This document shows positions 9,001 to 49,380 of a stretch of 64,000 nucleotides of DNA, one piece after another (the first letter of the stretch is position 1; each line of letters starts with the position of its first letter). Origin of the DNA: Saccoglossus kowalevskii (Eukaryota > Hemichordata > Enteropneusta > Harrimaniidae); assembly GCF_000003605.2 (NCBI RefSeq), contig NW_003112478.1, positions 57,443 through 121,442 on the forward strand, in the 5' to 3' direction. The position numbers and the translations under genes were made by a program. Under the pieces are notes generated by a model. The model ran no database searches, was not told the DNA's origin, and was given only the letters and a program-made list of their open reading frames with translations.

Positions 9001-11024
9001 CGTGTGGCGGTTGACTGGAACATACCATCGAAATAAATAAACAAAATAAATAGCAACCTGGTGTTCTTGTAATTTTTACAACGCATAAAACTGTTCTTGT
9101 TTGACGCTGTAAGATGTTTTTGTGTACATTTTTTTATTCTGACTCAACCTACCCATCGACGAATATAATATCAGTTTCATTAATTGTTTGCACAGACCAC
9201 AGGCTCCTATATCCATTTACAAATTTATTTGAATAGTCCTCACTGTCATTTACAACACAAAACGTGTCTTTTTTTTCATAAAACGATAACTTCACATTGT
9301 CACTTAGCAATGCCTCGGGTACAACGAATAGAATGAAATGGACTTACTTATTAATCACAAGTCAACTAATTTGTATTCGAAATAATACACGTGTCGTAAC
9401 CGTAAATGAAAACAGAACGCACTTTGTATGACTGATCCATCTTCCGTCCCAGTGACATATCTACGGATATTGAATCAGTAGGTTCATCCTCGCTAACAGT
9501 GATAATTGGATGTACGTGTTAAACTTCATGCAATCACACACAGACTGAATATAACCGGCGACTGCTTTTTTGAGTTCTCCATCCGTAAAACGCAAGTGAC
9601 TAAGCGTGCTTAACTGTCCTTAAGAGGCAACCATGCGGCGATCTATGTTTAACACAAAAAGAGTGCATTCAACTAGTTCTAAAATGGCAAGGTCATAAGA
9701 TACATTATTTGAAGAGGCAGGAATAGATAAACCAATATATTTCTCAGTGCACCAACCATGTTCCCAATGAGGTGTACTTGCGACATTAATAACTCAGGAT
9801 ACCCCACGGTGATCATTGCAACATTCACCGCGCATATTGTGTGCCTTTTATGTCTGACTTAAGGCGGTTCAGGCTGAATTACATGTTTGCTCTACTGAGT
9901 ATGTCTCTGAAAGAAATATTCCAACCATAGAAACCAGCGTAACATATATTTTTCGTAACTTTTCGGTGTCTTATATCTTAGAAAATTTGTCTGGTAACTC
10001 CAATTATCGTTTTTTTGGGTGTCCTGGTCGCACGAAAAGTAATTTTTAATTCGGCTCCAATCTAGACTTGTTAAATTGAACCAAACACGTAACATATTAT
10101 ACAATTGATTGAATTAACCGTGTTTATATTTCTGTATACACCGAAAGGCATAATTTACTATAAATTCAAGAATGTATTATGATACCATTGCCATATTTTC
10201 CAAAATATTAAGCTAAATAATATTCGGATTAGATATTTAGAACGAATCTTATAAACTATAAAAATATTATGTAATGACATATAGAAATGAAAAACACGTA
10301 ATACATGTCACTAATGTATTGACTGGAAAGTATTCAACAAAACAGCAGAATAAATTGCAGTGAACTTATTATCTAAAGTACCGATCTCCAAAAGGATAAC
10401 TCCAGTTTAATATGTATAAGCGATGGTTAATATATAATTACATTTCTGACATTCGTGTGTCTGGCATTATCACAAATAGTTATACAAAAGATTTAAGTAC
10501 GAAACGAAAGTACAGTTCTGAACATTGAAGCCAAAATTCTTTGATATGTAGATTTCATTGAAAACGTATCCACAAATCCCCAATCTCCAATTTTATAATA
10601 TTTGACCGTAAATAGATATAAATCAGGCTAGTAAATTCGAAGGTAGTTTACGTCTGAGTTCACATGATGAAGAGCAAACAGTGAATACATTAATGCTACC
10701 CGGATGCAATAACCCTAGTGTGGTAATCCGTGACTATTTTCTTAGGCTGATGTTTTCAAGTAACATACACACATCAAGTGACTTAATCGCAGATTGGAGT
10801 TTAACGCAATAACAAGTCATCGTTTCCGTACATAGATGTTTAGGTTTCCACTTTTTTATTTTCTCTTTGTCGTGTATTTGATTGTCACGCAGCATAAAAA
10901 GAAGAATTCGTAGTGTTTAAAAATGTTCCAGTTTTCTACTAGTTAGCCGCGTCTATGTTTATATGGTCTGTATAAAGTGACGCCTTATAAGCAACCTTTA
11001 CACTGAACGAGATAAAATAATTCA
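61..11024. other. Gene-poor AT-rich stretch
   Basis: No coding exon could be supported over this 11-kb stretch. The open frames are short (63-101 codons), rich in Phe, Ile, Tyr and Leu as expected of translated AT-rich DNA, and lack recognisable domains or paired splice sites. Only short runs such as AAT triplets near 2370 stand out. It could be intron or intergenic DNA. Confidence 0.6.
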
Positions 11025-11310
<286 letters not shown>

Positions 11311-18950: not shown

Positions 18951-18990
18951 ATGTATATATTTATTGATGTGTGTAAAAAACATGTGAATA

Positions 18991-19015
18991 AATGTCTCGT
19001 TTCTTTATTTTACAG
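18991..19015 (+). promoter_or_regulatory. Splice acceptor before the peptide-precursor coding exon
   Basis: A pyrimidine-rich tract (tctcgtttctttattttacag) ends in AG at 19014-19015. Eight non-coding bases follow before the ATG at 19024. The 5' exon was not located. Confidence 0.7.
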
Positions 19016-19023
19016 AATCATCT

Positions 19024-19392
19024 ATGGCCAGTTTAGAAATTCGCCTTATTCTACTTACCGTCGTTTGCCTTTATATACTGGCATGCACAACATCCTTTAT
19101 ATCCGCAACAGAGCTTGACGAAGAACAGTGGGATGCCGACCAACAAGAACACGACGAAGACTTTTTAGATAGGAGAAATGCCGCATTATTCACCAACCGT
19201 CTCTTGTCCGGTTTCCACTCAGGGGTTAAAGACCGCCGGAATGCGTCCCTGTTCACACAACGATTGCTGAGTTCTATGGGACAACGCGCTAGACGAAATG
19301 CTGCGCTTTTCGCCCAGAGGCTTCTATCGGGACTGGGTGGTCATAAAAGGATGCGGCAGTCAAGGGGAAGTAATCCGGTCGCTGAAGCATAA
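19024..19392 (+). CDS. Secreted multi-copy (neuro)peptide precursor-like protein
   Basis: A 122-residue secreted precursor. Residues 1-28 form a signal peptide (hydrophobic core ILLTVVCLYILA). An acidic spacer follows (about 29-49, rich in E and D), then three copies of a 13-residue core at 52-64, 73-85 and 92-104, with consensus NA[AS]LF[TA][NQ]RLLS[GS]x. Each core is preceded by an RR site (50-51, 71-72, 90-91), and a KR lies at 108-109. This is the layout of precursors cut by prohormone convertases in the secretory pathway. The three cores use different synonymous codons almost throughout (Arg agg/cgc/aga, Ala gcc/gcg/gct, Leu tta/ctg/ctt), which argues for selection on the protein. A strong splice acceptor (tttctttattttacag, ending at 19015) sits 8 bases before the ATG, so an untranslated upstream exon is expected. 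The family is not recognised. No Gly stands directly before a dibasic site, so C-terminal amidation is not predicted. An amphipathic defence peptide is the main alternative. Confidence 0.82.
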   Translation: MASLEIRLILLTVVCLYILACTTSFISATELDEEQWDADQQEHDEDFLDRRNAALFTNRLLSGFHSGVKDRRNASLFTQRLLSSMGQRARRNAALFAQRLLSGLGGHKRMRQSRGSNPVAEA

Positions 19393-26529: not shown

Positions 26530-28520
26530 TCTCTAAGTAAGTGATACTTTCCTGTGTATGTGAGGAGATACTGTTTTTCCTATGTGGGAAGAAAATGTTC
26601 TTTTTATGTGAGAAGATAATGTCTTTTCAATGTGAGATGATATCTTTTCTGTGTAAGAAAATAATGTCCTTTCTATATGAGAAGATAATGTCCTTTCTAT
26701 GTGAGAAGATAATGTCCTTTCTATGTGAGAAGTTAATGTCTTTTCTGTGTGAAAGTATAATGTCTTTTCTATGTAAGAAGATAATTTTCTTTCTATATGA
26801 GAAGATAATGTCCTTTCTATGTGAGAAGTTAATGTCCTTTTAATGAGAGGAGATACTGTCTTTTCTATGTGAGGAGATACTCTCCTTTCTATATGAGAAG
26901 ATGATCTTTCTATGTGAGAAGATAATGTTATTTCTATGTGAGAAGATAATGTCTTTACTATGTGAGAGAATAATGTTCTTTCTATGTGAGAAGATAATGT
27001 CTTTTCTATGTGAGAAGGTAATGTCTTTTCTATGTGAGAAGATAATATCCTTTCTATGTGAGAATATACTGTTTTTTCTATGTGAGAAGATAATGTTATT
27101 TCTATGTGAGAAGATAATGTCTTTTCTATGTGAGAGAATAATGTCCTTTCTATGTGAGAAGATAATGTCTTTTCTATGTGAGAAGATAATATCCTTTCTA
27201 TGTGAGAAGTTATTGTCCTTTTAATGAGAGGAGATACTGTCTTTTCTATGTGAGGAGATACTGTCCTTTCTATGTGAGAAGATGACCTTTCTATGTGAGA
27301 AGATAATGTTATTTCTATGTAAGAAGATAATGTCTTTACTATGTGAGAGAATAATGTCCTTTCTATGTGAGAAGATAATGTATTTTCTATGTGAGAAGGT
27401 AATGTCTTTCTATGTGAGAAGATAATATCCTTTCTATGTGAGAATATACTGTCCTTTCTATGTGAGAAGATAATGTTATTTCTATGTGAGAAGATAATGT
27501 CTTTACCTTGTGAGAAGATAATGTCTTTTCTATGTGAGAGAATAATGTCCTTTCTATGTGAGAAGATAATGTCTTTTCTATGTGCGAAGATAAAATCCTT
27601 TCTATGTGGGAAGATAATGTCTTTTCTATGTGAGAAGATAATGACCTTTCTATGTGAGAAGATAATAGGGCTTTCTATGTCAGAAAATGATAATGGCCTT
27701 TCCATGTCAAAATATAATGTTCCGTTCATGTGCGGAGATACTGTCCTTTCTATGAGAGAAAATGCTGTCTTTTCTATGTGAGAAGGTAATGTATTGTCCA
27801 TGTGAGAAGATAATGTACTTTCTATGTAAGAAGATACTGTCTTTTCTATGTAAGAAGATACTGTCCTTTCTATGTAAGAAGATACTGTCTTTTCTATGTG
27901 AGAAGATACTGTCCTTTCTATGTGAGAATATACTGTTCTTTCTATGTAGGACGATACTGTCCTTTCTATGTAAGAAGATACTGTCTTTTCTATGTAAGAA
28001 GATACTGTTCTTTCTATGTAGGACGATACTGTCCTTTCTATGTAAGAAGATACTGTCCTTTCTATGTAAGAAGATATTGTGCTTTCTATGTGAGAAGATA
28101 GTGTCCTTTCTATGAGAGAAGATATTGTCTTTTCTATGTGAGACGATAATGTCCTTTCCATGTGGAACTAAAATAACCTTTCTATGTGAGAAGATACTGT
28201 CCTTTCTATGTAAGAAGATACTGTCCTTTCTATGTAGGAAGATACTGTCCGTTCTATGTAAGAAGATACTGTCCTTTCTATGTAAGAATATACTGTCCTT
28301 TCTATGTGAGAAGATAGTGTTCTTTCTATGAGAGAAGATACTGTCTTTTCTATGTGAGACGATTATGTCCTTTTCATGTGGAAAAAAATAACCTTTTTAT
28401 GTGAGGAAATACTAGTAGTTTCCTCTTTATGAGAGAAGAAAATATCTTTTCTATGTGAGAAGATAATGTCTTTTTATGTGAGGAGATACTAGTAGTTTCC
28501 TCTTTATGAGAGAAGAAAAA
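26530..28520. repeat. 24-bp minisatellite, about 80 units, with higher-order repeats
   Basis: The unit is close to tctatgtgagaagataatg plus tcctt (24 bp). Because 24 is a multiple of three, frames without a stop in the unit stay open for long distances: a 542-codon frame on the - strand (8-residue unit SHIERTLS) and several frames of about 100 codons on the + strand (CEKIMSFL). Inside the - frame the unit switches from SHIERTLS to FSHRKDII and back, so indels have accumulated freely, which argues against a real protein. Marker variants (gataatgttatttc) recur near 26921, 27086, 27302 and 27470, giving a period of about 384 bp (16 units). The 3' half is dominated by gatactgtcc units with a 72-bp period, and a longer block near 28087 recurs near 28308. 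Confidence 0.95.
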
Positions 28521-32316: not shown

Positions 32317-34940
32317 TACACCGAAATTTTAGATAATTAACGGCTGCCACATTTGATACATTAGTAAATGCGGAAATGGTCAAGGTGGAAATAATAACAT
32401 GCCGATCACTGAACGAAAGTCGCACAATACAAAAACAGTCAAATGACATATGCAATACATTACAAAACATGGTCAAATCGATGAAAGATTGGTACATGGC
32501 CCAGGGAGTTGGTACATTTGGCGGTGTGTCTATTGCAGATGCCACACTGATAGAGCAAATACGTTTTTTTGGGGGGGGTCACGCTTATGAAATATATCTG
32601 ATCTTAGGCAGGCAATAATCCAATTCAGGATTATGTCTTTTCCGGAGCGTGTATTGATATCGGTTTCTCCCCGACCTATACAATATCATGTATCATGTTT
32701 CTAAATGACACCAAATCTAGTGCACAGCAAAAATAAATATTTTAACTAGTCAGAAATGATTTCCAGTCCCGATATAGCATTTATTCGAATTACACAGTCG
32801 ATGTTCAATTTTTGTTAAAAATTGGATTTCAGCTAAACGAAATATGTGTTCAGCATTCTTGAGTATAAATTGGTGAGTACAGGCTGAAATAACACAGTAT
32901 TTATGTAATGTAATGAAGTGTAATGTAATGCAATGTGATGGAACGTAACGTTCCATGGAATTCAAATGGGACATTGGATGTTCGTTGTCACGTTACGTCA
33001 TAAATATTCAAAACCCATAAACATGCTGATATGTAATTGTGTGTTTTTTTCAGCAAAACGATATGTCTACACGAGAGTGTGTAACGAGAAAAACAAACTT
33101 CGAATTGCCCACAATAACTGAACACATTATATGAATAGTAGTTCCTGAATTCGTCTGAGCCAAGTAGGAACACGCTGGTTTCGAAAAGGCATTACTAAAC
33201 TGGAGTAGGCAACTGTGAATACCCGTTCACTTTTTAACTATAATTTGACCTAAATAGACAAATTTAGGCAGATGATATTATAAATACCACTATTTACTTA
33301 TGCGCGGATTTATTGAACGAAGCAATGGGACACATATATACGCCTCAATTATAGAATTTGAACATGAAATGAGACTAAGAAGTATTTTCAACCTGGATAA
33401 ACAAAACTGTTGTTCTGTGCGTCGTTATATTTACTTTGAACTTTACCACAGTACACCGTCACGTCCAGTGGTGTCTTTAAGAATCCGTCAGTGGTCATGT
33501 CAATTCGGCTCAATGTACTGTAGAATTATTCATTTGCGTACACAAATTAAATATTGTTAATTACAAGTACTTACTCAGAATGAGTATTTTAACAAGACTA
33601 AAGAACACTCGATAAATACACCCTAAACAATTTTAATGACTTCTAACCGCGACCAAAAAATAAATTATCATAAATATATATTTTACCTTTGGAAATTCAC
33701 TTATTGTTATCGAGATATCAAATAGTTGGTCATTTGTATGCAGCAAACAAATGGGTTTAATAATTGATTAATGTGGTTAAATAATTGAGTAACAGATTTT
33801 GAATAGAGCTACTCCTTAATTAATGAACCACGAATTACTCAGAAGAGAAATGTGTATCGGCAACTCGTTTTTGAATGATATATGCAATAAGATTGGCTAT
33901 AAAATTCAGTTATACTCATACATAATGAGACATATGAATAACAGTAATAATTTTATTATTCATGAAATATGGTCCAAAAATATAATATTGAAATGAAAAA
34001 AATCCGATTGATGACATCTGCTGACGCCATATGAACAATGCCTGATGAATAGGGGTCGGCTGGAAAAACACATGCAAATGCAATGTTCATTGTGGTTCAT
34101 ATTTGCCTACTGACAATATATATGTATACATCTGTTTCATTCCCTTGGGTAATTATATTGTAACCACCTAATCAACTATATATATATATATATGTTATAT
34201 GAACCAACCGTTGCACCCTGGGGGAATTCTTCTAAACAAAATCCGAAAGAAACACCGGGGATTATAAACAATCGGACGCATATGTTTGCAAAAGGATTCT
34301 CGGTGTTTTAGGTTGTTTTCTGTACGTGGTTGTAATTCGATCTAAATGTAACTGTATACATATGTATCTTTAGCTAAGTTGTTTGTTCATATAATACTGA
34401 AAATACGTGAAAATTTGAATGTATTTGTTAGTTCAAACAACGTAGAATTTTAACGTTGGAAGAACATCAGTATTCGGCAAACGTTGTTTTTGTTAGTTCA
34501 AAAAACGTAAGATTATCACTTTAAAACACAAGCATTATGATTTTGAATCAGCAACATGCAATTATGTTAAAATTACTGGCAAGTATTTTTTTTACAAACG
34601 TTTGTACCAGACATTTTTTCTGACTTCATTTTGCCACAGAAATCATCTCATGTTTGGAACTTCTGGCATAGCTGTGTGACACACTTTTATATAAAATGGT
34701 AATTTAATGCGCTATCCCAGTGTCAACCAGGCACGGTCAACACGTGGATCTTAACCAAAGTTCCCTAAATGATACATTTATTAGCCATGCAATTTTCACA
34801 AAAACAAAATCAACGTAAATTATGACCAATTTTGCCCACTGTAAGATAATGTAACTCGGATAATAATTTCATTTCAAATTGAAAATATATATACAAATAT
34901 GTAAAATCCATGGGCAATATTGCTGTAACATATGTAATCT
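32317..34940. other. Non-coding stretch
   Basis: No gene could be supported. Short frames near 32.4 kb on both strands show no domain. A short TA run lies near 34172-34193. Confidence 0.5.
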
Positions 34941-35028
34941 AAATAAATAAATAAATAAATAAACAAACAAACAAACAAACAAACAAACAAACAAACAAAC
35001 AAATAAATAAATGAATAAATAAATAAAT
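34941..35028. repeat. Compound (AAAT)n-(AAAC)n-(AAAT)n array
   Basis: AAAT units change to about ten AAAC units and back to AAAT, a typical compound tetranucleotide microsatellite. Confidence 0.97.
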
Positions 35029-35402: not shown

Positions 35403-35904
35403 ACGTGCCGAATAAATATTGACTTTATATTTGCCTATGCATATACAGTTTAACAAATGTGACTATTACAATATTTCAAAATACTACAAAACAAAATATA
35501 ATTAATGTGGCATAACGGTTTCAGTGATTGTTGGCCATGCAGTAGCTCGTATAGTGACATAAATACGCGACGTGTTAACGCATGAAATCGTCTCCAAGTG
35601 ATACTTTTTATGTACAGAAAGCTGTAAAAGTATGTTTTACATAACTACAAAGTTGTATTCATTTTGAACAGTATAATAACTAAAGTGAAATTATCCAAAG
35701 AACACAAAACAGCAGGTACAATTTACAAACAAAGGCACGTATGAGTATTTATGTTTGAAAATGTCAAATATCTTTTCTCCACCGATTCGATTTATAATTG
35801 TTATATTTCTATTAGTTTGAGTTATGAGCATGTAATTTTAGTTTTCGGATTATCATTTTGAGCTTCTACAGTATTTCGTATGCGTATAACGTAAATGTCC
35901 AATA

Positions 35905-37176
35905 TCAAACCGTTCGTGTCCTCATAATTTCTCCATCAATACATTCATAGCGAGAGGCATCGTACACAAATGTGTTACAACAAGCTGGGAGAATCAACCC
36001 ATCTGTACTCATCATCTTTTCACCGCAAAGGTTCAGATCTGAATTCTCTCCATTAAACTGGTTTCCAGATTCCTAGATAATAGCAAGTTGAAGAAAAGAT
36101 CAGACCTACGATTGTATATACTTCACGAAGTGGAAACACTCGTACTTGTTACATGTGACTAGGCCATATTTCATACAAAAATATAAATACAAAACACATC
36201 CTAAGTATGTCGTTTGTTCTTCCCATATTTCAAAACCAATAAAACAGTTAAACTCTTTCATAATATTAGTGTATATATATTCATAAATATGTCATGAGCT
36301 CTATTCTGGCCGTATTATTATAATTGAAAAGTGAAGTAAAATATTTATTCAATTAGCATTAAATAAAGCGTCAGTTTATCTGCTTTGTTGTAACATCACA
36401 ATATATGGATTTGTTGTTGTGTGTACACGAATCCGTAAAAAAAAACACTATTTCAATTCCCGAATATTATTCCGCCGACGATGGCCATTTTAAAGTTATG
36501 TTTGCACTGGTTTAAATAAGTAATGCTTAACATAATTAAAAGCGTCACGTTTTAAGTAAATTTGACCTTCTATTTTATAATTACTAGTGGTTTTACCGAG
36601 AAGGAATGTAGTTACGTAGTCGGAGATATTGGAATCCAAAAATTGTTAAGATAGCAGCCCATATAAGAATATTATTTACATTGAACTACACTAGATGGCA
36701 TAACACATGTAAAACACGAGTGTATGATTGCTTTATATGTAATTGGCATTTGGCGCCGCAGACTGTCTGCATTATGCAAAGTATTTGTAGTTCTATATAA
36801 TCAAGCATGTGCTATATGTTGCCGGATATAATTATTCTTATGACACCTACATTGGAAATAACAGAATCCAATTAAGTCGACCAATGCATGCGTAACACTA
36901 CGTAAGACATGTCTACCATTAGATTGAACATTTATATGATACAACACAATTAAACCGATAATAATCAAATCAATCAATGCTCAATATTTTGCAATATTTT
37001 AGAGATACAACTTGAAGAAAATTATACATACTACTAACCATAATTCTTTTCCATATACCTCGTCCCCGTCCTCTTCCTCTACCTCGACCGCGACCACGAC
37101 TTACTTCCGCGTCGGAACAGAAAGGCTCGGCAAATATCAGCAAGCACAATGCAAATAATAGGGTTGATTGGTGCAT
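35905..37176 (-). CDS. Small secreted cysteine protein, galaxin-like, with RG tract (paralog A)
   Basis: Two coding exons: 37039-37176 (46 codons) and 35905-36072 (55 codons plus TGA), 101 residues. The donor ATG|GTTAGT at 37038 and the acceptor ttgctattatctag ending at 36073 are both phase 0. Exon 1 gives a signal peptide (about 1-22, core LLFALCLLIFA), then seven RG dipeptides (27-40) and IWKRIM. The RG codons are mixed (cgt, cgc, cga, aga, cgg with ggt, gga), so the tract is not a simple DNA repeat. Exon 2 has C62, CC at 77-78, YD at 83-84, C90 and DG at 92-93: pattern CC-x4-YD-x5-C-x-DG, like one galaxin repeat. Galaxins are secreted matrix proteins of coral skeleton with relatives in other animals; the role here is not known. 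An untranslated first exon probably ends at 37404 (caataag|gtaagac). Paralog B lies about 2 kb upstream in the same orientation. Another exon inside the 966-bp intron cannot be excluded. Confidence 0.75.
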
Positions 37177-37401
37177 CTCGCCTGTTATCGAGAATGTAGA
37201 TGGTGAAATAGATGTAGCCCCGATGCTAAAAGTCGAAATTTTATCAACGATAACTGAAACTATGTCTATTTGAAATTAGAATCAATTCAGAAATAACAGA
37301 GCTTTGAGGTAATATTTTATATACAAAAAGATTTGATCTTCCGTAACGTTTCCTGTCAGCCTATATCATATTACACAATGTGATTCACAAAACGAAGTCT
37401 T

Positions 37402-37410
37402 ACCTTATTG
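37402..37410 (-). promoter_or_regulatory. Probable splice donor of the 5' untranslated exon of paralog A
   Basis: On the - strand caataag|gtaagac is a near-consensus donor, with the last exon base at 37404. It faces acceptor-like sites gtttcag and cttttag about 60-85 bp upstream of the ATG at 37176, so a short 5' UTR intron is likely. Confidence 0.5.
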
Positions 37411-38682
37411 GTGAATGTGGGTGAAGTCAACTGTGGTGACGCTTTCCGAATGACACAGTACCGGATCTTACAATGATGCTTAGCCCACTTACACGGAAAC
37501 TACTAACATAAATGAGAGCAACGTATACGACTCATTGGCAGCCCTCGGTCTTCCTTATACATCCCTAACCGACTCTTGGGGCAGAAATCTATTTTTGCGA
37601 TGCATTATTAAATCGTGCTCTTCAATAAAATATGAGTGTCGATAATGAAATTTAAAGCAACATACCGACCGATATTATTAAGAAGGGGTGTTGATAGGCC
37701 AAATAAAGTGGCATATCTATGAATAATTTTTACAACGTCACACCTATTTTGAAAAAAATAGTTTGCACAGCTTAACGTCACTGTCACCAATACTCGCTTC
37801 AGTATCACGACTAGAATCCATTAGAGATGTTTTATGTATATTATAATTATTTCACATGGTGTGAGCAGTAGTTTGATTGCTTTCGAATGCGTAGTTTAAG
37901 GAAGAAAAAAAACAATATTGCTCGAGCAAACAGATTATTCGCTGTAGGTGATTAATTACGTATCTTTACTGTCTTTCTTTCCTTCCGATAAGCGACATAC
38001 ACCCCGTAGTTTGACAGGACATTCATGATATTGGCTGGCTGCTTTCTCGTTATATACGTATATGCCTCTAGGTGATGTCGTATGGTTGTATAGAAAAAAA
38101 AGTGATTACTCAATTGACAGTTTTTTTCAATGTCATCGCTATAAATGTTTTAAATATAATTACAAGTACAGCCCTAAATCTACTGTTTCATTACCTCGAC
38201 ATTTTATAAATGCATAGAACAATCCCTGCTGTAGTCACTATATAACTCGTCGCTTGTTCAATTAAAAAGACGCGTAATTACCATCAAAGCGGTATTTTTT
38301 CGTTTATTTACTAAAATTGACAAGGTCAAATTTTAAACCCACTTAAATTATTTAGAATATCTAAATATAGAGAACAATTTTATGAGTTCAATTTGTGCTA
38401 CATTCTCACCTTAGAAAAGTGCCACGCTTCACAAATACATAACGGGAATTGGGAAAGACAGGGTGTGTGTTCGTTTTGGGACAATTGAAAACCGCAACTC
38501 AGACGACGATAAACAAATTACACAAATTGAAAACGATCTCACTATCGCAAATTAAGCGATATTGATCGATATCTAGTTTAAATTATAGAGTGAATGTCAT
38601 ATATTCCGCACATAAAAAGAATTGACGAACTCTCAGCAATGATAACAGATACAATATTCATTAATAATTAAAAACATATGCG
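37411..38682. other. Intergenic stretch between the two paralogs
   Basis: No coding sequence could be supported. It should contain the promoter of paralog A (high-coordinate side of 37404) and the 3' end of paralog B; an AATAAA on the - strand at 38683-38688 is a candidate poly-A signal for B. Confidence 0.45.
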
Positions 38683-38688
38683 TTTATT
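38683..38688 (-). terminator. Candidate poly-A signal of paralog B
   Basis: AATAAA on the - strand (tttatt on +), about 440 bp downstream of the stop codon at 39126. Weak on its own, because AATAAA is frequent in this AT-rich DNA. Confidence 0.3.
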
Positions 38689-39125
38689 CTTGTCCATCTG
38701 AGGTGCGATAAAGATGATGCAAATAAATAAACAATCAAACTAGTAGCAGAAATGTATGGGCTTGAATATAAATATTCTGACACAAATAAAAAACAACATA
38801 TATTTTCCGTAACGTTACATTATTATAATCGTTAGCTTCCATTTCTAACATTGGTTTTTATAATACAGAAAAGTTAGGCTATAATGGATAAAGTGCAGAG
38901 ATAATCTACTTCACAGAAAAAACACGATAATAATCTATTTGTAAATGTTAGGTAAATAACCAGTACTCATAATAGCTTGAGCGTGATATAGCTAGTGATT
39001 TCTAATGTCTGAATGCTAATTGTTCAAATCTGTACGTCGATCATGTCGGAACTTCGCTCTATATATTTAACTTTCATTTGTCTGAAAACAATATGTACAT
39101 CAGGTATCCATCTCCCGAACGCTTA

Positions 39126-39894
39126 TTAAAATCTTTCTCTTATTCTGCCGTCCATGCAGTCGAAAGTAAGAGCATCGTAACCTTCTGGTCCACAACATTC
39201 AGGTAAAATCCATTTCTCCGCATTCACGGGAAACCCATCGCAGCATATGGTATCGTACATGTCGATTTCATTGTCTTCATCTCCGCATTTCTGAAATTAA
39301 TCACATATTACATGTCTAAACAAATTGTGTACTTCATTACCACGCTACCCATAATTTGATAACAAGACGCTTTTTTCGCTATTATTTGTATATGGCGGGT
39401 GAAACACAATGAGCTCACATTTATCATTCAACTAAATCGTTGATTTACCGTCTCCTAAATACATTTTGTAATATTGCTCAACCGTTCGAAGTGTCAGTAT
39501 ATATCGAAATTTTAAATAATGTTTTTATTTTCGTGGCAAGCGACAAACACACACTTATAAAAACGAATGAAAATGTGTTATGTGCTATATTTATTATAAA
39601 TGATTTTCTTTTTCTACTTTCAGCAGACGTATCAGGCGTCTTCATATAAATTTAATTCTAACATTTTAAAACTTGAAATTGAAATTTCATGGACACCAAC
39701 AATATCGGACAAACTAACAACACTAATGAAAGTTGGCTTTGGTCAAACAAAAGATTAGTTATACGTTCACAAACCATTGTTCTTTTGCTGTCAGGTGCAC
39801 GGCCTCTTGAGCGATTTCTGTTTCGAGTATACGTTCCTGCCATCGTGAGTTCAACCAAAACAAGAAGTAACAGTGCAACTATTATACGGTTCAT
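39126..39894 (-). CDS. Small secreted cysteine protein, galaxin-like, with NR/RGR tract (paralog B)
   Basis: Two coding exons: 39775-39894 (40 codons) and 39126-39290 (54 codons plus TAA), 94 residues. The donor ATG|GTTTGT at 39774 and the acceptor ttaatttcag ending at 39291 are phase 0, the same position and phase as in paralog A. Residues 1-20 are a signal peptide (core IIVALLLLVLVELTMA). A basic tract RNRNRSRGR (24-32) and SKRTM end exon 1. Exon 2 has C42, YD (52-53) followed by CCDG (56-59), then ILPECC (68-73), YD (78-79), C85 and DG (87-88). The second block is CC-x4-YD-x5-C-x-DG, shared with paralog A; the first looks like the tail of another such repeat. The six cysteines of the mature protein could form three disulfides. 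A second acceptor (ttatattccttccag) about 26 bp before the ATG implies an untranslated first exon. Structural-matrix, mucus or effector roles are all possible. Confidence 0.78.
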
Positions 39895-39920
39895 GTTGGT
39901 ATTTTATTTTAGTAGAGTAT

Positions 39921-42900
39921 CTGGAAGGAATATAATCAAGAACAGATTATGATTTAGTATTAATAAGAGTATGGTTCTTGTGTTAACAGAGCAATTTTTT
40001 TACATCAGTAAAATATAAACTAAACGCAAATTCACAATAAATTTGTTGAAATAATCTTAGATTCACGTCTTCTGGAAATCAAATATATGCACGCACTTCA
40101 TTTCAGGATTTATGGCGGTGTTAGGTTGGGCAGCTGACTGTATATCAAACACGCTTGGGACTAAGGTTATGTATATGTGTAGGTGACCCACTATCAAGTA
40201 AAATGTCATAAACATGTTTGATAGTTCAAGATATGCCAATGACAACAATGTATTGTACACCCACAAACACTGAAAACTTCATGAATTATAAAAAAAGTAG
40301 TAATACTAATAAAAGAACTTGAAATTAAAACATAATTATTGTAAATTTTCAGTTAGCACTTGCAATTATTTCTAAAACGGCATTATTGTAACATAGTTTA
40401 AAATTAAGTAATGTGTTTTAGCGACATACAACATGTTTAGCTAGGAATTAAACAGAGAATACAGCAAGCCTCGCATATCTTGCATATAGCAAGACGCACT
40501 ATTGTAGTTTCGTAAAAGTGGGAGGCTTTTTTAAATTGATTTCCAAGCACCATACGTTATTCCATAACCAATTTTTGAAGTAACTTTTACAAACTATAAT
40601 ATTAATGTTGTTTCAGTCTGCAAGCATATATCTTAGGTATATGGTCATATAGTCCGAAACAGCGCGCTTTGTCTAAAAACTCAGACATAGATTTCACTGT
40701 ATTGTATATTAGTAAGCACACTGAGAATACAATTTCACACACAAGAAAAGATACAAGTAAAATATTAATATTAAGTATTAGTATAATCTTCAAATAACAA
40801 TAATCTTTTATCACATTTACTGAAATATACATGTTCTAGATAAAATAAAGATGAAACCATGATTGATCGAGGAAATTGGGTTGTAAAAATGAAAACACCT
40901 CGATTAATTTTAGAATGAAATATATTATTAATATATAATGATATGTGCGAAAATGTATGGTTTTAATAAGATCAGTTCCGGATGATAAAGATAATGGACG
41001 ATTCACTTGTGAGAGGTTACACCTGGAATTGAAAAACGCTTCCCTGCCCACGCTCATATATTCCACGGGAAACTAGTAACAGGTTCACGATTTAATTAAC
41101 ATACCGAGCTTCGTGGGAATGACGTATACAGATCGTAACTGGAGTCATATTGCAGAAAACACTACATAACAATGAAGCACATATTCCCATTGCTTGCAAC
41201 GCATTGTTTATGAATATTTAAAAAATCGATTTAATTGTGAAACTGAAACGTTCGCTGAAACACTCACAACTGACAAACGCGCACCGAAACTACTTTCTAC
41301 TTTGAACTAGTATGACGTGCTACGTGACCTTAGGAAGTTAAGTTATTATCTTTGGTGTAAAATCCCATTTCTATTTACAAACATCGAACCTGATTCTCGT
41401 TAACAACGTGCCACTATTTTGTGTCACACATATGGTCTGACAACTTTTTGTCGACAAGAGTTTGTTGATAAATTGGACAAATTATAGACTATTTTTTGGT
41501 TTACCGTATCAGGCATGCGTGTTGACTTGTTGTTCAGTTCAAGTGCACGCAAGATGTGCATTAGTTAACAGCATATGGTTGTTTCATGAAAACGTAAATG
41601 TATTGTTCGTGTTTGACCTTCAGAAAGCCTCGTTTCCCGAGAGAATTGGTCTGATAAATGAGCATCCATCCCCGCGCTACCGGTTAATCTCCCCTAAATC
41701 AGTTTTTAAATGATGAACATGAACACAGTTCGTCAATCAGATAGTTTATTATTAAGCCACACAGAACAAGGTGATAATTGCCCTTCTCTTGTCATTTGAT
41801 AATTTGTTATTCACCCATTCAAGGGTTACTTTAGATTCTCAGAAGATTTTCACGAAAACCTAATTGTGGTCTTTCGAGTGTTTAATGATCTATGGTTACA
41901 ATCATCTACCGTGTGTTATTGATTCTGTTTTTTGGACATCGCACGCACAAGAAAACTCATCACCCATAAGTTCCTTGGATGTAATTAGGAGGCATAGTGC
42001 GCATCAAGGAGTTTTCAATGCCAGTGGTGTCGCATGAGTAGACAGTGTTTATTACGACTTGTTTGTCGGTGTCATGCACTTGTCGTGCGGGGAATTTCGA
42101 GTAGTAAGTGTGTACAATTTCCGCGACGACCAACGTTATTGAAAAAAGCCGTATAAGAAAAATAATAATAATAAACAATTCCCTATAATATTGCCAATTA
42201 TGTATGTAATATAGATTTACATTAAAGGAAATGTATGTTTACCTGTGTATTACCTGTGTAATTATCGTCGTGCTTGTGTGCAATCGTACAACTATTGCAC
42301 ATATCTCGGGAGAATTATCGGAGAACGAAAATCGCGGCACATAAAATACGTACTATATTATGTGTCATCACACAACTTATCCGGTTTCCAAAATAGTATT
42401 TCAAATATTTGTCGTTGCTTATATTACCGAACGTTTACGGGTACATGTGAGTGCATACATGTAAAAGTTTTTTGAATATGTAACAATTATTATAGTATTT
42501 TGATGAAATTTCATTTCAAATGGAAGGTCAACAAAGTATAGCTTAATACAAAGTCATTGTTTCTATATAAACTAGCTCGGTACCCATATATATGTATATG
42601 GTTAATTAATCGTTAATTAGTATTAGTGCATTTCATCCGATGCCGACTTAGTTATACTAGTTATACAAAACGTGACTTGGTGTACTCTGAAAAAAACTGA
42701 CGAAAGTTACTTGGTTTTGAACAATTTCACAAAGTTTCCCTACTGAAACGTTACTGCTCGACATTTGACATTTTATCTTTGTCGTATTTCAAAACCAAAC
42801 ATTCATAAAACTCATTTTCGTAACATTAAGTCAATTATTTACCTAATTATGACTAAAACTGATAAATTGTATGTTTATATTTCTTTTTGTGTGTTGTAAC

Positions 42901-46630: not shown

Positions 46631-47728
46631 TATTGGTTATATTACTACCTCGTATCCTAATTTGTCAGCATACATTACCGCTGGGTAGACGGAACGATAG
46701 TGACGTGTTCGATAATCGTTTCGAAGTCTGCATAATTTACGTAATAGTAATGTAAATCTTCTTCGACACACTATAGCGGACAGTTAAATATTCATTCAAT
46801 ACCACCACATAACGACCAACCCCTGAATTTATCGGGGCTGTATTTATGTTCTAACTCCAGTTGCAAAATAATTAACTGGTTATTCATTCGAGGAGGGAAA
46901 CAGTATTCCTCTTCGTTGTGGTGAATTATTATAATCAAACTAAAACACTCGAGAAAACATATGCATCACGTGCCTTTGTGGATTCACATGGAAATACAAT
47001 GTCATATATAACGCGGTAGTTTTTTCTATACATAGTGCTTTCAATAATGAATCGGAGTTGTCTGCATTTTAGCGCCAGTGGCTAAACGACAGTGATAGTC
47101 ATTGTATGATTGTACGTTTAAATTCCCGTTCATTTGAATATTCATTACATGTTTGGATACGATATGAAAATAATAGGTTTTTTTTGGAAACACGTAGCAG
47201 TGTTGTATTTCATGGCGGGTGGTGGTCGTCGCGTCGCGTCCTGTTCGATATGGGAAATACATTGTTTGTTTACATGAAATTCGAACACGGGCTGTGACCA
47301 CCGCCTTACGTATGCAAATTAAAGGTGCCTGCAATTTATTAAGAAATATACACAGTTTAATAGTGTGCGGACGTAACAAATATATATCCGTTTTCGAAAT
47401 ATCGATGTCCATTATGCAATTTGTATATGTTTACACAATGAACACGTGTGCTTGGTCACGGACTTGTACAACATTGTGAGTATTGTGATAGGTTTGCGCA
47501 ACCGTTATTTTGAAACCGGTATTTAGAATGAGCGTCAATGGAGATCCTATTAGCTTTATATATTCGTGGATAGACAAGTCGGCTGACTAAAAACATGCGA
47601 AAGTACAAAAGCAATACTTTGCTGAGCGAATGATTTCGTAAAATAAATGAAAAGTAACAGTAGAAAGTGCGGTGTCCTGGAACTCTTTTCCACTTAAACA
47701 TGGTATTGTGCTTCCCACCGCATAGTCT
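46631..47728. other. Non-coding stretch upstream of the membrane-protein gene
   Basis: Overlapping frames on both strands at 47041-47479 are open but show no domain or splice context. No promoter motif could be fixed. Confidence 0.45.
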
Positions 47729-49380
47729 TAATATGAGGCTATTACTAGTATACCTCAAAGTATACACGAAGACAGTAAGTATAGCTGGAGTATCGACCGA
47801 AAAATGTTTAGAACAGAATCGGAAACTTCTTTGTGTGGAGCCCGGTCAAACTCTGGTAGCAGCCATGTTTGTTTTTTATTATTACCTTGCCCGTACCATC
47901 AAAGATGGAAGGGAAAGGTATATTAAGGGAAAAATTTTGTCCGGCGTTGTCGTCGTCGTCGTCGGCGTCGTCGTCGTTAATAATTGTCATTGTGTGCATA
48001 ATAACTTTACTAATTCTATTCCAAACTTTATCAAACTTGGTCACCCTATTCAACAGTATAAAGTCTTCCCTGAGTTTGAACAACAGATGTCCTGTATGAA
48101 AATATCATGCAAAAATTGAGAAAATCTGATAAAATATTTTGACTGTTTCTACTTGACTGATCACTGGTGATACACATCAAAGGTCACTGATCTCAGTGGA
48201 AATATGCATTGTTGTATGTGTTCAATGAAGCAAATGATTTATCTTGTAATAATATCCTTGGTAATGTATCTCAGAATTCCATACTGGGTTTCAAAACCAA
48301 CTCATGGAGAGATTGCACAGTCTGATACACATTTGCAAACCTACCAATAAAATCTTTACAGAAAACAAGATGTCAGAAAATCAATATAAGCACTCCTATG
48401 AACTGGGTGCTAACTTTGATCAAGATCTGAAGCTAATAGAAAATCTGTTTAGTTCAAAGTTATCAAATCAAAAACAAAAAAAATACATTAAAAGCAAAAC
48501 ATTTCATCCACATTTTAAAAAGAAAATTATTCTAAAATATATGTATTCTGTTTTTGACAAACAGTTCATTCGACAAATGAAAACTCACAGGAATATGTTT
48601 CAGCTATTAGAACAGAATGATAGAGTTTTTATAATACTAGTTTAAAAACGCACTTTAAAGATAGCAGTGTTTGAAGATGTAGATTCTCAGGAGGCAACAG
48701 TACTGTTGACTTCTCCCTCCACTGGACACCAACTATTTAAGTTGATTTGCATACAAAGCAGAGCTTGCAACATGATAGCTATTCATAAAGGGTGTTTTTT
48801 TTTACTTTTCATATAATACAGTAGTCACACAATGAGGCAGTTCATATTTGTCTCAGTGAATCATTAATTTTTGGCAGACACCTGTACAAAATACGTGGAC
48901 TAAAGCCAGCTAAATTTTTCTGTTATCTTGCACGTTTTATGAATCTATTCACACTTTTTTTTGCAATGAGACATTTGTTTTTATTCTAAAATATCTGAAT
49001 TACTTTGAATAAAGCTGGAAATTATGTTCCTTAAAATAATTAAACAAATAAGGCACCAATGTTTTTGTAAGATATTTACATCTTTTAAGGACATTCGGTA
49101 GACTGATTCCCCACTGTTGGTTCAAAAACTTGTTTGTATTCAAAATTAATTATGACAATGCATATTTATATTGAAACAAACTATGATAAAGGGAATTATA
49201 TTATATAACAAAGGGCAAGGTCACCAGAGTTTAACTATGTTTAGAGGACGCTTACGCGCGTGATCATTCCACATTTGGAATTCGCATTTCCTAATATGGT
49301 AGAATGAAAATATCCCGTAAAACGCCGCAAAATTACGGCACGCTGTAACATATGGCGTTACGGTGACAGATGTATAATAA
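47729..49380 (+). repeat. Interspersed repeat family R1, copy 2, split by an insertion
   Basis: The left part 47729-47883 matches copies 1 and 3 up to catgtttgttttttattatt. The right part 49241-49380 resumes at tagaggacgcttacgcg and runs to gacagatgtataataa. In the other copies these two pieces are directly joined, so the DNA between them is an insertion. Confidence 0.8.
47884..49221. mobile_element. 1.34-kb insertion with 9-bp terminal inverted repeats
   Basis: The segment interrupts R1 copy 2. It begins with accttgccc (47884-47892) and ends with the exact reverse complement gggcaaggt (49213-49221), suggesting a non-autonomous DNA transposon. Nineteen extra bases (49222-49240) separate the right end from the resumed R1 sequence, and no target duplication is obvious, so the right boundary is uncertain. 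Inside are a GTC triplet run (47946-47975) and a 113-codon + frame (48304-48645), Lys- and Gln-rich and without a recognised transposase motif. Confidence 0.5.

What the first reader, a model, noticed from the sequence alone, without database searches (positions are those of the whole stretch)
35905..39894. Tandem pair of secreted galaxin-like cysteine proteins with Arg-rich linkers
Two adjacent genes in the same orientation share gene structure (signal-peptide exon, phase-0 intron directly after KR[IT]M, single cysteine exon) and the motif CC-x4-YD-x5-C-x-DG, yet differ strongly in sequence. Basic RG- or NR-rich tracts between a signal peptide and a galaxin-like module are unusual: one repeat unit instead of many and a highly cationic N-terminus. 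This points to a locally expanding lineage-specific secreted family.
Basis: partly seen in the sequence, partly recalled or inferred. Interest (0 to 1): 0.78.

Follow-up and report, generated by a model that had tools for sequence, protein, structure and literature searches.

The report
Two one-repeat galaxin-like secreted proteins
Two neighbouring animal genes encode small secreted proteins that join a strongly positive, arginine-rich stretch to a single negative, cysteine-containing unit resembling one repeat of the coral skeleton protein galaxin; they look real and may be precursors of a cationic peptide, but what they do has not been tested.

Summary
Two two-exon genes lie on the minus strand: A (37176-35905, 101 aa) and B (39894-39126, 94 aa). 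Each has a signal-peptide-like start, an Arg-rich stretch, KR-x-M, a phase-0 GT-AG intron and one cysteine exon. P0001, a 96-aa protein from another public contig, matches B ungapped over 94 residues (69%) across the exon junction.

Pfam Galaxin_repeat is the best match for A, B and P0001, but below the cut-off (15.3, 22.9, 20.8 bits; cut-off 28). It is absent from 10 of 10 cysteine-preserving shuffles.

"Linker" is too weak: a basic segment (pI 12) and an acidic module (pI about 4) meet at a dibasic KR, and between B and P0001 the basic segment is better conserved (17/19) than the module (34/56). I favour a bipartite precursor releasing a cationic peptide; cleavage and function are inferred.

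"Locally expanding" is not supported: no third copy was found in the window, and A and B are 33% identical, so their split looks older than that of B and P0001. The own-genome search did not complete. Verdict: new variant of a known kind, moderate interest.

The parts
37039..37176 (-). Gene A exon 1: signal peptide (MHQSTLLFALCLLIFAEPFCSDA, cleavage site estimated by eye), (RG)7 basic segment EVSRGRGRGRGRGRGRGIWKR, then IM
36073..37038 (-). Gene A intron, 966 bases, phase 0, GT-AG
   Evidence: sequence only
35905..36072 (-). Gene A exon 2 with stop TGA: acidic one-repeat galaxin-like module, 55 aa, Cys pattern C-CC-C
   Evidence: Pfam PF24748 E 0.0046 for the exon alone
39775..39894 (-). Gene B exon 1: signal peptide MNRIIVALLLLVLVELTMA (cleavage site estimated by eye), basic segment GTYTRNRNRSRGRAPDSKR, then TM
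   Evidence: matched by P0001
39291..39774 (-). Gene B intron, 484 bases, phase 0, GT-AG (donor GTTTGT)
   Evidence: P0001 is ungapped across the junction
39126..39290 (-). Gene B exon 2 with stop TAA: acidic galaxin-like module, 54 aa, Cys pattern C-CC-CC-C
   Evidence: Pfam PF24748 E 1.1e-4 for the exon alone
37317..37323 (-). TATATAA about 147 bases upstream of the gene A start codon: possible core promoter element (none of this pattern within 400 bases upstream of B)
   Evidence: pattern match only

Best explanation
Genes A and B are old tandem paralogues encoding small secreted bipartite proteins of the galaxin-related kind: signal peptide, Arg-rich cationic segment of about 20 residues, dibasic KR, and one cysteine-rich acidic galaxin-like unit. 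Shown: gene structure, homology of A, B and P0001, galaxin-like character of the module (below the Pfam cut-off), opposite charge of the two halves, and strong conservation of the basic segment between B and P0001. Inferred: a proprotein convertase cuts after KR in the secretory pathway; the acidic module keeps the cationic peptide neutral until then; and the released peptide acts outside the cell by binding polyanions, most likely as a host-defence peptide (bacterial surfaces), less likely as a matrix-organising peptide. The module may stay bound or act separately.
For: KR-x-M conserved in A, B and P0001, at the exon junction in A and B. Basic segment pI 12 (net +8 in A, +6 in B and P0001) against module pI 4.05-4.21 (net -5 in A, -9 in B and P0001). 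Basic segment 17/19 identical between B and P0001, module 34/56, Fisher p 0.024, with segment borders drawn by eye. The seven RG units of A use five different Arg codons and two Gly codons, so the repeat looks kept as protein rather than being a fresh microsatellite. Galaxins have a dibasic or RXRR processing site (PMC2726143 and PMC6824150, passages). The squid galaxin-like EsGal1 is reported as antimicrobial (stated in PMC7853314 and, as 'galaxin' among mucus antimicrobials, in PMC8547416; passages; the primary paper is not held). Galaxin transcripts are among the genes changed after Vibrio exposure in mussel gill and haemocytes (PMC7772429, PMC6697025, passages). Crab arasin 1 likewise carries its activity in a Pro/Arg-rich N-terminus (PMC3543460, start of abstract in a search listing).
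Against: No expression, peptide or activity data. KR is present, but without the Arg four residues before the cut that furin prefers (IWKR, DSKR; the preference is recalled), so cleavage is unproven. In galaxins the site yields the cysteine part as the mature protein, the reverse of the emphasis here. The conservation contrast rests on one pair of sequences and 19 residues. A has no homologue in the protein search, so conservation of its RG segment is untested. The organism is unknown.
Confidence: 0.4

Rival explanations
1. The protein is not cleaved at KR. It works whole as an extracellular or skeletal matrix component: the cysteine-rich unit cross-links or anchors, and the basic tract binds acidic matrix polymers or mineral.
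For: Galaxin and cysrichin are matrix proteins (PMC2726143, PMC10045328; passages). Amgalaxin-like proteins also join a charged domain to di-Cys repeats, with the charges reversed (acidic part pI 3.21, Cys part pI 12.39 in Amgalaxin-like 1). The module matches Galaxin_repeat.
Against: Only one repeat, whereas coral galaxins and cysrichin are multi-repeat. A conserved dibasic site lies exactly between the halves. No evidence that the host makes a mineralised skeleton.
Confidence: 0.3
2. The basic segment is only a propeptide. The secreted product is the acidic cysteine module, a small disulfide-rich signalling or effector peptide whose sequence diverges while signal and pro-region stay conserved.
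For: Conserved signal and pro-region with a more divergent module (14/19, 17/19, 34/56); intron just after KR-x-M; coral galaxins are predicted to be processed this way.
Against: The Pfam Conotoxin match of B (E 5.8e-4) appears in 4 of 5 cysteine-fixed shuffles of B, so it reflects the signal peptide, basic stretch and cysteines, not module homology. A has only four cysteines in the module. Pro-regions are rarely this basic (general knowledge).
Confidence: 0.2
3. One or both models are not functional genes (chance ORFs or pseudogenes).
For: No transcript of the window itself was available; A has no homologue in the protein search; the B donor GTTTGT is weak.
Against: P0001 matches B over 94 residues without a gap; A and B modules align above shuffles (0 of 2000); both models are open with GT-AG sites.
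Confidence: 0.06

Closest known systems
Galaxin sensu stricto (Galaxea, Acropora)
   Same: Secreted; di-cysteine repeat unit of about 30 residues; processing site before the Cys part (PMC2726143, PMC6824150; passages)
   Different: One unit instead of many; no RXRR; 94-101 aa instead of 338 in Amgalaxin; basic N-terminal segment
Galaxin-related proteins of molluscs, annelids, sponges and others (Pfam PF24748 Galaxin_repeat)
   Same: Best profile match for A, B and P0001
   Different: All below the curated cut-off of 28 bits; single unit. A published survey excluded 'predicted, partial sequences' under 200 aa and required E below 1e-9 (PMC6824150), so proteins like these may have been missed there
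Amgalaxin-like 1 and 2 (Acropora millepora)
   Same: Bipartite: a charged domain plus a di-Cys region
   Different: Charges reversed: here the N-terminal part is basic and the Cys part acidic; a single unit. That the coral acidic domain is N-terminal is recalled, not seen in the passages
EsGal1 (Euprymna scolopes)
   Same: Galaxin-like secreted protein with reported antimicrobial activity (PMC7853314)
   Different: Sequence not compared here; primary paper not held
Arasin / hyastatin type chimeric antimicrobial peptides (crabs)
   Same: Cationic Pro/Arg- or Pro-rich N-terminal part; SpHyastatin is described with a separate cysteine-rich domain (PMC3543460 and PMC4954822, starts of abstracts in a listing; the cysteine-rich C-terminus of arasin is recalled)
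   Different: No homology shown; here RG/NR-rich rather than Pro-rich, and a dibasic site lies between the parts

Membership tests
Galaxin-related proteins (Pfam PF24748) | Profile match at or above the curated cut-off (28 bits) | tested here: not met
   A 15.3, B 22.9, P0001 20.8 bits; E 0.02, 9e-5, 3.8e-4
Galaxin-related proteins (Pfam PF24748) | Similarity beyond cysteine spacing alone | tested here: met
   The match is absent from 10 of 10 shuffles with module cysteines fixed, 5 of A and 5 of B. For A this is weak, because its own match (E 0.02) is near the filter limit and its second match, zf_DPOE_2 (E 0.1), is also lost
Galaxin-related proteins (Pfam PF24748) | Two di-cysteine motifs per repeat unit | tested here: inconclusive
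   B and P0001 have C, CC, CC, C; A has C, CC, C, so one di-cysteine is reduced to a single Cys
Galaxin-related proteins (Pfam PF24748) | Tandem repeats of the unit | tested here: not met
   One unit per protein; no further module exon above the inclusion threshold among 2123 ORFs of at least 20 aa in the window
Galaxin sensu stricto | RXRR endoprotease motif (PMC6824150) | tested here: not met
   Sequences read IWKR, DSKR, DTKR; no RXRR by eye
Galaxin sensu stricto | Occurrence in the skeletal organic matrix | not testable with these tools
   Organism unknown; no proteome
Conotoxin superfamily (Pfam PF02950) | Match depends on sequence beyond signal peptide, basic stretch and cysteines | tested here: not met
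   B E 5.8e-4 and P0001 E 0.014, but 4 of 5 shuffles of the B module still match (E 2.1e-4 to 0.078)
Galaxin-like antimicrobial protein (EsGal1) | Antimicrobial activity | not testable with these tools
   Needs a bench assay; the EsGal1 sequence was not compared here
Secreted proteins | N-terminal signal peptide | tested here: met
   Mean hydropathy of the best 10-residue window 3.34 (A) and 3.82 (B); no dedicated predictor was available

The most novel reading that the evidence does not exclude
A, B and P0001 define an undescribed animal family of bipartite precursors in which a single acidic galaxin unit serves as intramolecular neutraliser or chaperone for a releasable Arg-rich peptide. That would be a charge-reversed counterpart of the coral galaxin-like proteins, and a path by which a matrix repeat became part of a peptide-effector precursor.
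Probability: 0.25. Interest if true: 0.62.

Novelty: new variant of a known kind. Interest (0 to 1): 0.4.

Why it matters
Galaxins are best known as multi-repeat matrix proteins, and one squid member is reported as antimicrobial. A one-unit, charge-split form of about 95 residues with a dibasic site is small enough to synthesise and test. It could therefore show whether the galaxin unit is primarily a structural, a defence or a propeptide element. Surveys that use length or strict E-value filters may miss such proteins.

Tried and rejected
Conotoxin relationship: rejected, because the Pfam match of B appears in 4 of 5 cysteine-fixed shuffles. Other weak Pfam matches of A: zf_DPOE_2 (E 0.1; 0.035 for the exon alone; absent from the 5 shuffles), Pinin_SDK_N (0.3) and EBNA2_Core (0.25), the last present in 5 of 5 A shuffles that keep the RG tract and so due to composition. 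P0001 also matched BACOVA_00961-like at 0.019 and the B exon SpaA_2 at 0.2; neither was followed. Microbial or viral origin: no relative in viral contigs (alignment A2). In genome contigs, P0001 gave one match of 15 residues in a bacterial metagenome bin with no module around it, judged chance. Structure: AlphaFold2 on three sequences gave pLDDT 57.7 (full B) and 53.8 (B module), too low to interpret, so no fold search was made. Solved structures: none by sequence for B; A was not tried. A third copy in the window: none; the next best of 2123 ORFs had E 0.34. Neighbouring genes by Pfam: 114 ORFs of at least 66 aa were left after removing those in two repeat arrays and low-complexity ones; 111 of them were scanned (three overlapping ones dropped), with one match in all, DUF7865 E 0.0072, so no clue to the animal group. 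Shorter ORFs were not scanned against Pfam, apart from the two module exons. No tRNA by a bacterial-code scan, no Rfam family at gathering score. First protein search for A: 7987 candidates scored, none at E 0.01, probably swamped by RG words; second, with residues 44-101: no candidate.

Literature: galaxin searches (full text, open-licence PMC only; listings complete; 15 of 48 papers listed, 15 of 623; none in 23 and 29). In the titles and starts of abstracts listed I saw no single-unit galaxin-like protein with an Arg-rich N-terminal segment. Papers opened, passages only: PMC10045328, PMC2726143, PMC8547416, PMC7853314, PMC7772429, PMC6697025, PMC6824150. None was read whole.
Full report
WHAT WAS CHECKED. 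The stated coordinates were read and the two gene models rebuilt on the minus strand. Gene A: exon 1 37176-37039, intron 37038-36073, exon 2 36072-35908, stop TGA to 35905. Gene B: exon 1 39894-39775, intron 39774-39291, exon 2 39290-39129, stop TAA to 39126. All borders are GT-AG, phase 0, directly after KR-I-M and KR-T-M. The B donor (GTTTGT) is weaker than the A donor (GTTAGT). The proteins are 101 and 94 residues long.

MORE THAN CHANCE. The motif CC.{3,6}Y[DN].{3,8}C.[DEG]G occurs only at the two places in all six frames, with a mean of 0.0 in 40 Markov versions of the window; two looser cysteine patterns are not special (4 against 1.45 expected; 7 against 4.6). A scan for a hydrophobic start followed by a strongly basic stretch returned 3 of 409 Met-initiated stretches, A and B the strongest; I set its criteria after seeing A and B, so it shows rarity in the window but is not a blind test. 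The degenerate DNA for KR-x-M followed by GT was found only at these two exon ends. The two cysteine modules align with score 72, against 28 +/- 6.2 (maximum 67) in 2000 shuffles with cysteines held fixed. Over the whole proteins A and B are 33% identical across 91 columns. Between the two loci (35700-37700 and 38900-40400) blastn gave one 23-base match, E 0.11, in opposite orientation, so no significant DNA similarity.

INDEPENDENT RELATIVE. A search of about 5.8 billion proteins with B found one relative, P0001, 96 aa, on a 1,440-base contig (E 1.2e-36; 65 of 94 identical, no gap). The source label is 'lgn', which I take, from recall, to be the Logan assemblies of public reads; the organism is not given. 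The alignment passes over the exon junction after residue 40 without a break, as expected of a spliced transcript (an intronless copy cannot be excluded). B is closer to P0001 (69%) than to A (33%), so, at similar rates, the A/B split is older than the B/P0001 split. A found no relative.

WHAT THE MODULE IS. Pfam Galaxin_repeat (PF24748) is the best match for A (15.3 bits, E 0.02), B (22.9, 9e-5) and P0001 (20.8, 3.8e-4), and for the exons alone (A 0.0046, B 1.1e-4). All lie below the curated 28 bits, and A and B match different stretches of the 131-position profile (12-50 and 29-77). In ten shuffles that keep the module cysteines (5 of A, 5 of B) the galaxin match is absent in 10 of 10. For A this is weak support, since its match is near the reporting limit and its second match (zf_DPOE_2, E 0.1) disappears too; the tie of A to galaxin rests mainly on its homology with B. 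The second Pfam match of B, Conotoxin (5.8e-4), appears in 4 of 5 B shuffles and is therefore rejected. B has the order ICCDG...LPxCCGxxxYDxxxxxC, which resembles one repeat of cysrichin as described in PMC10045328 (passages). A keeps the second half and has one cysteine of the first pair. By the published criterion (RXRR motif; PMC6824150, passages) neither is galaxin sensu stricto; the fitting label is a divergent one-unit galaxin-related protein.

THE BASIC TRACT. The segment between signal peptide and module has pI 12 (net +8 in A, +6 in B and P0001), while the module has pI 4.05-4.21 (net -5 in A, -9 in B and P0001). A split with reversed sign is described for Amgalaxin-like 1 (acidic part pI 3.21, Cys part pI 12.39; PMC2726143, passage). 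Between B and P0001 the signal peptide is 14/19 identical, the basic segment 17/19 and the module 34/56 (Fisher p 0.024 for basic against module; borders drawn by eye). In A the seven RG units are written with five different Arg codons and two Gly codons, which speaks against a recent microsatellite. The tract is therefore probably a functional part and not just a linker. This rests on one pair of sequences.

HOW IT MAY WORK. A dibasic KR at the border of the two halves is conserved in all three proteins. Coral galaxins have a dibasic processing site. I therefore favour a precursor cut at KR, with the acidic module neutralising the cationic peptide until release, and a peptide that acts on polyanions outside the cell. 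Host defence is preferred to matrix building: one squid galaxin-like protein is reported as antimicrobial (PMC7853314, PMC8547416; passages), galaxin transcripts appear among genes changed by Vibrio in mussels (PMC7772429, PMC6697025; passages), and the cationic-plus-cysteine layout recalls arasin and hyastatin (starts of abstracts in a listing). Everything from cleavage onward is inference. The rivals are an uncleaved matrix protein, and a basic propeptide of a small cysteine peptide, which is how the coral site is read.

LIMITS. The organism is unknown; introns, signal peptides and the galaxin unit point to an animal. Pfam scans of 111 of 114 longer ORFs gave no usable neighbour; shorter exons elsewhere in the window were not scanned. 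The own-genome search was busy at nine attempts, so the size of the family in this genome is unknown. Structure models were of low confidence and were not used.

Noticed in passing
window 18988-19389 (+): Open frame with signal-peptide-like start, acidic spacer and three repeats RRNA[AS]LF[TA][NQ]RLLS: looks like a multi-copy peptide precursor (neuropeptide or antimicrobial). No Pfam match. A paper search for NAALFTQRLL gave none, but that string mixes two copies and matches none exactly, so it says little.
   Followed up: partly
window 26543-28488: 24-base minisatellite, about 81 copies at 81% matches, open in reading frames on both strands, up to 544 codons on the minus strand; strong local GC skew.
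   Followed up: no
window 11015-11310: (AAAT)74 microsatellite at 97% matches; a second TAAA array at 34940-35028.
   Followed up: no
window 1-64000: CpG observed/expected is 1.07 at about 35% GC, with no sign of the CpG depletion usual in methylated animal genomes (general knowledge); it may help to identify the animal group.
   Followed up: no
window 47945-47977: (CGT)11 triplet run at 86% matches, inside a long open frame at 47664-48116 (+) and on the minus strand in 47811-48104.
   Followed up: no
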